Source of the DNA: Nitrospirota bacterium
GTDB taxonomy: Bacteria > Nitrospirota > Thermodesulfovibrionia > Thermodesulfovibrionales > Dissulfurispiraceae
Length of the DNA: 34,336 nt
Assembly (NCBI GenBank): GCA_021847795.1
Contig: JAJZPZ010000016.1
Span: 1 to 34,336 of the forward strand
Direction: 5' to 3'
The position numbers were made by a program, and so were the translations under genes. The notes beneath the pieces were generated by a model, which worked only from the letters and a program-made list of their open reading frames with translations, did not search any database and had not been told where the DNA came from. Below, one piece after another: positions 4,945 through 15,370 of the stretch. Each line of letters opens with the position of its first letter. Within the stretch, counting starts at the first letter, position 1.

Positions 4945-6177
4945 TCAGGATCGCCACCTGCCGGACGGAAGCGGTTTGGAGCCGCGATGTCCTGTCGCAT
5001 CAACAACATAGAGCCAAGTTGGGAGGATACCTCGGTTGACCTGGACCGGTACCAGAACACGGCGGCAGAGGCAGGGGCCGCCGGGGTGGAACCCCTCCAG
5101 CCGGTCGATGGCCGGGAGGCGGGTCTCGGGGTCGTTGAAGGTCAACAGCTCCCCGTACACGGGGTCCGAAGCGTAGAGAACCGCCTTGCGGCGGGGATGC
5201 CAGCGCAGTTCCAACGGCCTGTTCCCCTTGAGCACAAGGACGGTGCCCGGGTCGGTCCGGCAGGCGATGACGGCGGTGATCTGACCCCGGCAGCGTCTGA
5301 GCCGGGTTTTGAACCTCTCGATATCCATAGCCCCGTCCCGCGCCGCGTTCGCGGCCAGGCGGAACAAAATCTCGCTGTCCACCTCGGCGAAACGGCACAG
5401 CTTCCAGCGTCGGAACAGGTAGTCGGCGTTGTAGATGGTGCCGTTGTGGGTGCCGATCACCTCGCCCGCGCGGATCGGATGGTTGTTGCTGTTGACCCGT
5501 TCGTCCCCACGGGTGCGCCAACGGGTGTGCCCGAGCAGGAGCGTGATCCGGTTGTCCAGGCTGGCCAGGAGTTCGGCGAAGGCCTTGTCCGTCACAAACC
5601 GCTCGGCCGTCACCGGGCGTTTGAAAAGACGTTGGCATCCGTCGATATCGAGCCAAGCCGCGCCGGTGGCATGGGGACCGCGCTCCTCGCTCAATATCAA
5701 CAGACGGGTGAAGAGCCAGGCAAGCTGGTCCATGGCAGCCCCTCCGTTCGAGACGGCGGTGAAGGACTCGCTCACCAGCTTCTGGACTCTGGTGTGCAGC
5801 CGTTTGAGTTCACGCTCGTGACCTCGTTGTTCGGTTTCCAGTTCCGCCATGCGTTTGCCGCTCTCTTGTCGAACCTTTGCAGCCGTGGCTGCGATGATTT
5901 CCTCGTTTCTGCCGATGGATCGGATGTGTTCGACCACCGCGGTTTCGATCTCGTGCGCGTTGAGCGACTTGGTCGGACAGGACGCCCATCCTCGTTGCTG
6001 GGCGTTCAGGCAGACGTAATAGCGATCAGCGGGAATCCGCGGAGGCCTATATAGCGAGCCAACGGCACGAGGGATGGGTGTGCATCCCCGGCCGATTTGA
6101 CGACGGTGGGTTCCCCGGCGGCAACATGGAACGCCCGTTGGTTCTTGATGCTGACTCCCGGGCTTCTCCCCGGCCAC
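4945..6177 (-). pseudogene. Chimera: serine-recombinase C-terminus fused to class II glutamine amidotransferase lacking its nucleophile
   Basis: The open frame encodes 410 residues. Residues 51-136 are the end of a large serine recombinase: the RYYVCLNAQQRGWASCPTKS zinc-ribbon remnant (two Cys), then a coiled coil rich in E and R. From about residue 138 the text is an N-terminal-nucleophile amidotransferase: EERGPHATG (164-172), GHTRWRT (216-222), NSNNHPI (229-235) and GTHNGTIYN (242-250). Class II amidotransferases need Cys at position 1 of the mature chain. Here the first 25-30 residues are replaced by recombinase, so glutaminase activity is not expected. The recombinase catalytic domain is also missing, and residues 1-50 come from a third reading frame of island DNA. 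The last about 35 residues may be extra too. At least two deletions made this gene. Confidence 0.7.
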
Positions 6178-14216: not shown

Positions 14217-14319
14217 GCGAGAAAAGCACGCCGAAAAATGCGATAATTCGTTTTCCAAAATAGTTTGATACAGTCAAACCTTATTTGATTTTAGCACGCC
14301 GCCTATCTAATCTCACACC

Positions 14320-14929
14320 TCAATAGTTCCTGATCAGCAGCTCGGTTACCTTCTGGCTGTTCTGTCCGCCGCCAGCCGAGTACGTGGTCCCTACCTCCTC
14401 GATCGAGAAGTCCCGGAAGGTCCTCCGGATCTCGGGACGATCGTTGATCGTAGGGTTTGTTCTCAATGAACACCCTGGAGAGGCGGAGGTGAGCTACGGA
14501 AAGGTCCTCCTCGATCCGGAGGAGGTTCAGCCTCGGTGCTCTGGTTGCGCATACACCGAAAGTAGGATTCCGGATCTTGCCTGAAAAGCCCATCCTCAGC
14601 AGGTAGTAGAACCTCACTGCCCGCTGAATATCCGTGAGAACTTCCGGCCGTTCTGTCTTGAATCTCTCGAACTCATCCCTGGCAACGAGGATCCATCGGA
14701 AGTACCGTATGAACTCATCCAGGTGATGCTTCACCACCCTATAAAGCGTAACGAGATCGGTATTGATGTCATTGATAATCTCGACCTCGGACTCATCTTT
14801 TTTAAAAAGCACCCAGGCGGCTCCGGCGAACACCTCGCAGTAGCATGAATGCTGCGGGATCAGCGGGATGATTTTATTGGCCAGCAGTGATTTGCCGCCC
14901 AGGTAAGATAAAAAACTTCTTCTCTTCAT
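14320..14929 (-). pseudogene. Phage-type D12-class adenine-N6 DNA methyltransferase (Dam-like) with internal deletion
   Basis: Residues 1 to about 160 are intact: LSYLGGKSLLANKIIPLIP, the SAM motif EVFAGAAWVLF, EIINDINTDLV and YYLLRMGFSGK. At about 14438-14451, after FIENKPYD, the sequence jumps to the family's C-terminus in another frame: INDRPEIRRTF and then GTTYSAGGGQNSQKVTELLIRNY, ending at the TGA at 14320-14322. The deleted part, about 60-70 residues as I judge from relatives, contains the DPPY catalytic motif, so the enzyme must be inactive. The frame that continues without shift ends at 14303. The ATG follows a hairpin/terminator unit, see 14950-15020. Mu-like phages often carry such methylases to protect their DNA. 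Confidence 0.8.
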
Positions 14930-14949: not shown

Positions 14950-14980
14950 AAAGAAAAACCCGGCAGCTTATGTGCCGGGT
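14950..14980 (-). terminator. Intrinsic terminator directly before the dam-like gene
   Basis: On the minus strand ACCCGGCA (14980-14973) pairs perfectly with TGCCGGGT (14965-14958) around a 7-base loop, and a T run follows (TTTTTCTTTTTT). The ribosome-binding site (GGGGGAGG) and ATG of the methylase come immediately after, so transcription must get through the terminator to express it. Confidence 0.85.
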
Positions 14981-15020
14981 CTAATAGCTCTCCGAAAAGT
15001 GCGGAGTTATAACCTATCCT
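14975..15020 (-). promoter_or_regulatory. Structured RNA hairpin, unit 1 (before dam-like gene)
   Basis: The unit reads on the minus strand GGATA, a stem strand, AA-CTCCG, loop, CGGAG-AGCT, the opposing stem strand, then ACCC. The last bases are shared with the 5' arm of the terminator at 14950-14980, so folding of this hairpin and of the terminator can compete. It is the third copy of the motif at 15228-15326. Confidence 0.6.
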
Positions 15021-15027
15021 CGTACTA

Positions 15028-15186
15028 CTATTCCTGTATTTCTTTGTTTACGACGACCTTTGTAATCCCTCCAGCGTTCATATGGATGAGGACCTGCCCG
15101 GTCATTTTCGGTCCGATATCCGGGCGCTCTTTCAACAATTCAACCAGCCTCTTCTCCCATGCTTTTAGCTGCTCAGTTTTTACCAT
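15028..15186 (-). CDS. Small phage-associated protein (52 aa)
   Basis: The ATG at 15186 has AAGGAGG six bases upstream, a strong ribosome-binding site. The product begins MVKTEQLKAWEKRLVELLKE, an amphipathic helix, and ends in a probable beta hairpin (QVLIHMNAGGITKVVVNKEI). No family is assigned. The second half faintly resembles the short DUF2292/YezD-type fold, a guess only. It lies between two hairpin/terminator leaders, so its expression and that of the dam-like gene are probably controlled in the same way. It could be the regulator that binds those leaders. Confidence 0.7.
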   Translation of the reverse strand: MVKTEQLKAWEKRLVELLKERPDIGPKMTGQVLIHMNAGGITKVVVNKEIQE

Positions 15187-15198
15187 CTCCGCCTCCTT

Positions 15199-15227
15199 AA
15201 AAAAGTAAACCCGAAACCTCTGCCGGG
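15199..15227 (-). terminator. Intrinsic terminator directly before the 52-aa gene
   Basis: CCCG at 15227-15224 pairs with CGGG at 15213-15210 on the minus strand, followed by TTTACTTTTTT and at once by the ribosome-binding site of the 52-residue gene. The 3' arm can alternatively pair over 14 bases with an upstream sequence (15279-15292), which would open the terminator. Confidence 0.65.
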
Positions 15228-15326
15228 CCGGATTGATCAGCTCTCCTTAAAGGAGTTGACCACTATCCTACAAAGCGTGAGATTTCGGGTTTAACAGTTC
15301 TCCGGAGAGGAGTCGTTAAATATCCG
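15228..15326 (-). promoter_or_regulatory. Tandem structured RNA hairpins, units 2 and 3 (candidate riboswitch or attenuator)
   Basis: Two copies of the motif lie in tandem, at 15326-15286 and 15269-15228, on the minus strand. Each begins GGATA and has an outer stem (TTAAC/GTTAA in unit 3, TGGTC/GATCA in unit 2), a constant asymmetric internal loop (GA or AA opposite AACT or AGCT), an inner CTCC/GGAG stem and a variable loop. The outer stems differ in sequence but keep pairing, which is covariation between copies. A TATAAT sequence at 15339-15334 lies 7 bases upstream, though with no good -35. Terminators follow, see 15199-15227. Confidence 0.6.
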
Positions 15327-15370
15327 ATTGGGTATTATACCTTACTTCATAAACTCAGCCTCCTGTCTAT

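What the first reader, a model, noticed from the sequence alone, without database searches (positions are those of the whole stretch)
14950..15339. Three copies of a structured RNA motif, each leading into an intrinsic terminator before a gene start (candidate new riboswitch or attenuator)
On the minus strand the motif GGATA - stem - RA - CTCC - loop - GGAG - ARCT - stem occurs three times (15326-15286, 15269-15228, 15020-14975). The outer stems differ (TTAAC/GTTAA, TGGTC/GATCA, and a bulged GGTTAT/ATTAGACC) yet still pair, while the internal loop and the GGATA flank are kept. A tandem pair plus terminator precedes the 52-aa gene, and a single copy plus terminator precedes the dam-like gene. 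In both cases the ribosome-binding site comes right after the T run. Bases 15279-15292 can pair with 15207-15220 and so open the terminator. I do not recognise it as a known riboswitch class.
Basis: partly seen in the sequence, partly recalled or inferred. Interest (0 to 1): 0.75.

Follow-up and report, generated by a model that had tools for sequence, protein, structure and literature searches.

The report
Phage RNA switch beside tiny gene
Three copies of a previously uncatalogued RNA hairpin in a prophage sit right in front of transcription stop signals around a tiny 52-amino-acid gene; the same pairing of RNA and gene recurs in other phages and prophages, which suggests a new self-controlled on/off switch for phage genes, probably worked by the tiny protein.

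Summary
Three copies of GG(A/U)UAG-P1-AA-P2-loop-P2'-ANCU-P1'-CCCG lie on the minus strand; the core pattern is expected 0 times by chance in the window. I collected 26 copies from 11 phage or prophage loci: all 10 base pairs of P1 and P2 show compensatory changes, 93.6% of cells pair against 72% after shuffling. No Rfam family matches. Every copy lies next to a 49-74-aa protein gene of one uncatalogued family, and confident motif hits in the genomes searched occur only at such loci. Each copy runs into the 5' arm of an intrinsic terminator. In all nine leaders the 5' end of copy 1 can pair with that arm (helix P0); folding predicts P0 before the 3' arm is made and the terminator afterwards. 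This is LicT/RAT logic, but these hosts encode no CAT-domain protein. Best reading: a phage antiterminator/attenuator, most likely bound and autoregulated by the small protein, that also gates the next gene (Dam here, a reverse transcriptase in relatives). Binding and direction of control are inferred, not shown.

The parts
15330..15339 (-). -10-like TATAAT (with ACCC) just upstream of copy 1; RNA would start a few bases before copy 1
   Evidence: sequence; TATAAT at the same place in C183, G131 and L047, CATAAT in G001 and L228; no sigma-70 -35 found
15286..15325 (-). Motif copy 1 (GGATA-P1-GA-P2-loop-P2'-AACT-P1'-CCCG)
   Evidence: 45-47 bits; covariation
15324..15327 (-). P0 5' strand (UCGG), pairs with 15288-15285 (CCGA) in the antiterminator form
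15279..15292 (-). 5' arm of terminator 1 (AAACCCGAAATCTC); its CCGA is also the P0 3' strand, so the two are mutually exclusive
15229..15268 (-). Motif copy 2, lying in the loop of terminator 1
15207..15220 (-). 3' arm of terminator 1 (GAGGTTTCGGGTTT), also able to pair with the short arm after copy 2
15199..15209 (-). T run of terminator 1, followed directly by the Shine-Dalgarno of the 52-aa gene
15028..15186 (-). 52-aa gene, uncatalogued small protein family, predicted alpha-beta-beta; proposed RNA-binding regulator
   Evidence: no match in Pfam, PHROGs, NCBIfam or PDB
14976..15019 (-). Motif copy 3
   Evidence: 48-50 bits
14947..14981 (-). Terminator 2, whose 5' arm starts at the P1' end of copy 3
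14303..14929 (-). Downstream Dam-like (D12) methylase gene, internally deleted here

Best explanation
This is a phage-borne transcription attenuator built from a new antiterminator RNA and, most likely, its cognate 52-aa protein. RNA starts just upstream of copy 1. Left alone, the strong terminator (arm after copy 1 with the GAGGTTTCGGGTTT arm) ends transcription before the small gene. The nascent RNA can first fold into an antiterminator: P2, P1 and the basal helix P0 (5' UCGG with CCGA) separated by two conserved asymmetric internal loops (AUAG/AC and AA/ANCU). P0 takes bases away from the terminator. A factor that binds the conserved loops and holds P0 closed allows read-through. I propose that the factor is the 52-aa protein itself, giving positive autoregulation, and that copy 3 lets the same protein open terminator 2 and express the next gene. 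Shown by computation: motif, covariation, association with the gene, overlap with terminators, predicted fold switch. Inferred: that the RNA is made, that the protein binds it, and that binding favours read-through.
For: 26 copies with compensatory changes at all 10 pairs, 55 two-sided-change cells against 17 in shuffles. G-U cells outnumber A-C cells 19 to 5, so the strand read is the RNA. 11 of 11 loci carry the small gene within a few hundred bases; with the models, confident hits occur only at such loci in 230 and 396 genomes. The order promoter-copy1-[arm-copy2-arm-T run]-gene is kept in nine leaders, and copy 3 in eight loci. P0 probability is 0.61-1.00 before the 3' arm is made and 0-0.13 after, when the terminator takes 0.86-1.00. 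On copy 1 alone P0 averages 0.97 against 0.46 with shuffled 5' tails. The N0 pair of P0 is present in 16/17 of copies 1 and 3 but 2/9 of copy 2.
Against: P0 shows no statistically significant covariation of its own. It is weak for copy 3 in the window and in G131. Folding energies always favour the terminator once complete. The protein has no recognisable RNA-binding domain and its model is of low confidence. No expression data. The prophage is partly decayed (Dam deleted), so function in this copy is not assured. Known instances are few (11 loci).
Confidence: 0.5

Rival explanations
1. Same RNA-protein pair but opposite sign: the small protein, once abundant, binds the motif and promotes termination (negative autoregulation, as PyrR does at the pyr attenuators).
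For: Copies before the regulator gene and again before the next gene resemble the pyr layout (my knowledge; PyrR stabilises an anti-antiterminator, PMC4347634). The window copy 3 forms little of the P0 seen at copy 1.
Against: The motif's basal helix competes with the terminator directly; no separate antiterminator helix that the motif would block was found.
Confidence: 0.2
2. A metabolite-binding riboswitch: the loops bind a small molecule, and the small protein is a regulated gene or a partner.
For: Conserved unpaired bases, tandem copies and terminator overlap are usual for riboswitches (my knowledge; motif and loops).
Against: Found only beside this one gene family in phage-like loci, never before metabolic genes; no Rfam match. 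The core is small.
Confidence: 0.12
3. A put-like RNA that binds RNA polymerase itself and makes it resist terminators, with no protein needed.
For: Copy 1 is at the extreme 5' end of a phage transcript, followed by terminators, as putL is (PMC9378689).
Against: Each terminator has its own abutting copy, which a processive mechanism would not need. put is ~70 nt of two stem-loops, here single ~40-nt copies. Strict co-occurrence with a protein gene. Two loci have only the copy after the gene.
Confidence: 0.08
4. Ordinary strong terminators whose hairpin neighbours have no regulatory role.
For: Terminators are strong and sit between phage genes.
Against: Covariation of P1 and P2, conserved unpaired bases, and conserved position relative to both gene and terminator need selection on more than termination.
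Confidence: 0.07
5. A DNA-level element (recombination or transposon-end hairpin) rather than an RNA.
For: SD-ATGAAG string repeated on both sides of the element; the element sits at different places in different phages.
Against: G-U pairs exceed A-C pairs 19 to 5; strict orientation relative to terminators and gene.
Confidence: 0.03

Closest known systems
BglG/LicT/SacY antiterminators and the RAT RNA
   Same: [quoted passage not shown] regulator often encoded in the controlled operon, with copies before more than one gene (PMC3369936, PMC9981650).
   Different: No CAT_RBD (PF03123) protein in any of 7 motif-bearing genomes, with controls positive. The small protein does not match CAT_RBD, is predicted alpha-beta-beta rather than a four-stranded sheet, and has no PRD domains.
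ANTAR (NasR/EutV) two-hairpin antiterminators
   Same: Two hairpins in the leader, one overlapping the terminator (PMC3369936).
   Different: ANTAR targets carry critical A1 and G4 in the hairpin loops; here terminal loops vary in length and sequence and the conserved bases are in internal loops.
HK022 put RNA
   Same: Phage RNA at the very 5' end of a transcript acting on terminators.
   Different: put is ~70 nt, two stem-loops, RNA-only and processive (PMC9378689); here single ~40-nt copies abut each terminator and a protein gene always accompanies them.
PyrR attenuators of the pyr operon
   Same: Regulator is the first gene; a binding site plus terminator precedes it and the next gene (my knowledge).
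   Different: PyrR stabilises an anti-antiterminator (PMC4347634); here the motif overlaps the terminator itself, and the protein is far smaller.

Membership tests
BglG/LicT (CAT-RAT) antitermination | RNA antiterminator hairpin mutually exclusive with an intrinsic terminator | tested here: met
   P0 and terminator share CCGA; predicted switch in 9/9 leaders; prediction only
BglG/LicT (CAT-RAT) antitermination | CAT RNA-binding domain protein | tested here: not met
   PF03123 absent from 7 motif-bearing genomes, found in 4 of 14 controls; family members do not match it in Pfam
BglG/LicT (CAT-RAT) antitermination | stem with two asymmetric internal loops bound by a protein dimer | not testable with these tools
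   two asymmetric loops are predicted (AUAG/AC and AA/ANCU); binding not testable
ANTAR antitermination | paired hairpins with A1 and G4 in their terminal loops | tested here: not met
   terminal loops vary in length and sequence across 26 copies (alignment A5)
HK022 put | ~70-nt double stem-loop acting on RNA polymerase without protein factors, processively | tested here: inconclusive
   size and single-copy layout do not fit; activity not testable
known Rfam riboswitch or leader | covariance-model match at gathering score | tested here: not met
   only a tRNA in the whole window; the best sub-threshold hits mainly match the terminator hairpin
PyrR-type attenuation | binding site acts as an anti-antiterminator | tested here: inconclusive
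   no separate antiterminator helix seen in predicted folds

The most novel reading that the evidence does not exclude
A self-contained antitermination module of phages, made of a new ~40-nt RNA class and a new ~50-60-aa RNA-binding protein family unrelated to N, Q, CAT, ANTAR or put, that switches itself on and then opens terminators in front of accessory genes such as Dam or a diversity-generating reverse transcriptase.
Probability: 0.45. Interest if true: 0.75.

Novelty: new variant of a known kind. Interest (0 to 1): 0.6.

Why it matters
Both halves are uncatalogued: the RNA is not in Rfam 15 and the protein is not in Pfam, PHROGs, NCBIfam or the PDB. If the protein binds the RNA, this would be a very small dedicated RNA-binding antiterminator, and a case where motif, partner and target terminators sit together in one 400-base cassette. 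It would show how some phages gate accessory genes, including reverse-transcriptase cassettes, and could serve as a compact genetic switch.

Tried and rejected
A strict pattern scan of viral and genome contigs gave almost only chance hits, judged by lack of P1 pairing; only L047 was real. A promoter-anchored pattern gave no new instance, nor did the last pattern. The phage and plasmid collections hold no relative of the proteins tried. Alignment A3 was too diverse for the search for related loci. An extended outer pairing of GGAU with AUCC was considered and dropped as not general; only GG with CC is kept. Covariation of P0 was tested and was not significant. Fold search of the protein model gave nothing above noise. 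The variant GGTAACTTAAG motif was searched in the class and occurs once. Weak model hits in G316, G307 and G163:C36 are judged chance: G316 and G307 appear to lie in coding sequence, G163:C36 was not assigned.

Full report
CHECK. The core pattern GGATA-N4..10-RACTCC-N3..14-GGAGARCT matches exactly three times in the window, never in 100 shuffles. Rfam 15 gives no match at gathering score apart from a tRNA; the best sub-threshold hits in the region mainly align to the terminator hairpin.

RELATIVES. The same genome has a second prophage (contig C183) with the same layout. A viral contig (L047) has it downstream of a gene whose product matches Pfam Mor. Searching by protein and by covariance model added G131, G163, G306, G001, G362, G342 and two viral contigs carrying reverse-transcriptase cassettes, L226 and L228. 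This makes 11 loci and 26 copies.

RNA STRUCTURE. On alignment A5 all ten pairs of P1 and P2 have two-sided changes: 93.6% of cells are paired against 72.3% in shuffles, covariation score 0.602 against 0.220, and every slid control is far lower. P2 alone appears as CUCC/GGAG, CCCGC/GCGGG, UCCCGA/UCGGGA, CCUGC/GCAGG and CCC/GGG. G-U cells outnumber A-C cells 19 to 5 (P 0.007), so the strand read is the RNA. Unpaired positions are also conserved: GG 23/23 of the rows aligned there, A 25/26 and A 20/26 on the 5' side of the upper loop, A-N-C-U on its 3' side, CCC after P1'. The alignment was made with the motif in view and includes related sequences, so the counts are not independent events.

LAYOUT. 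In nine leaders the order is: -10-like box, copy 1, terminator 5' arm, copy 2, terminator 3' arm, T run, Shine-Dalgarno, small gene; the box is clear in about six of them. Copy 3 follows the gene in eight loci, with a second terminator in seven of them; G362 and G342 have only that copy, and L226, L228 and G001 have only copies 1 and 2. The next gene is a Dam-like methylase in the window; in L228 it is a reverse transcriptase (RVT_1) followed by Dam. The window segment is a prophage with contractile-tail genes.

SWITCH. The competing helix is P0, formed by the 5' UCGG of the RNA and CCGA inside the terminator arm. Without the 3' arm P0 is predicted in all nine leaders (probability 0.61-1.00); with it the terminator takes over (0.86-1.00). 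On copy 1 alone, P0 averages 0.97 against 0.46 with shuffled 5' tails; in G001 and L228 the shuffled tails do nearly as well, so those two say little. The third pair of P0 (N0) is present in 16/17 of copies 1 and 3 and 2/9 of copy 2 (Fisher P 0.0004), as expected if P0 matters only where the motif abuts its own terminator arm. Covariation at N0 is not significant, and P0 is weak for copy 3 of the window and G131. These are thermodynamic predictions only.

PROTEIN. Members are 49-74 aa, with an N-terminal helix and a TG-x-I-x-(I/L)-N-x-GG-I-T core. No Pfam, PHROGs, NCBIfam or PDB relative was found. The AlphaFold2 model is helix-strand-strand with mean pLDDT 65, too low for conclusions, and fold searches gave nothing.

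ASSOCIATION. Model R1 in 230 genomes of the class and R2 in 396 of the phylum gave confident hits only at loci with the small gene. Conversely, all protein hits with E below 1e-7 in the class carry the motif; weaker relatives do not, apart from a divergent version in G210. So RNA and protein travel together, which is why I favour the protein as the binding partner. That step is inference.

COMPARISON. [quoted passage not shown]). It is not a member: CAT_RBD is absent from seven motif-bearing genomes while present in 4 of 14 controls. ANTAR loops are not met. put and PyrR differ in layout.

VERDICT. A real and, as far as these libraries show, undescribed cis-regulatory RNA family of phages, most likely an antiterminator/attenuator with its own small protein. 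Read-through and binding remain to be tested.

Noticed in passing
14303-14929 (-): The Dam-like gene is internally deleted relative to the 255-aa gene in L228: the stretch with the catalytic DPPY motif is gone and the frame changes.
   Followed up: yes
15364-15342 (-); L178 about 5827-5848; L182 about 1318-1339: A Shine-Dalgarno plus two-codon frame ATG-AAG-stop lies just before the -10 box in three relatives, each with a different stop (TAA, TAG, TGA); a similar SD-ATGAAG string (16 of 19 bases) starts the Dam gene at 14945-14924.
   Followed up: partly
L226, L228, L204 (G001:C9): In relatives the element lies between a template-repeat-like stretch with an Avd-like frame and a reverse transcriptase, i.e. 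inside what looks like a diversity-generating retroelement cassette.
   Followed up: partly
L216/L299 (G210:C148:4817-4852): A divergent motif GGTAACTTAAG-UCCC-loop-GGGG-GAACUUUAG-CCCG plus terminator follows a distant relative of the small protein; only one genome of the class matches its pattern.
   Followed up: partly
G000:C158:5998-6117, G228:C96, G405:C2, G408:C46: Short distant relatives (KFTGYIKINF.RGTV.KVEKFEEI) without the motif, followed by terminators; function unknown.
   Followed up: no
L178 6166-6290: In the second prophage of the same genome copy 3 is fused, apparently by a deletion, to what looks like the end of a Dam gene, with no T run left.
   Followed up: no
L228 about 5226-5270: A hairpin with weak likeness to the motif (GGACAG...AATCCTATG...CATAGGA) lies between the reverse transcriptase and Dam.
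   Followed up: no
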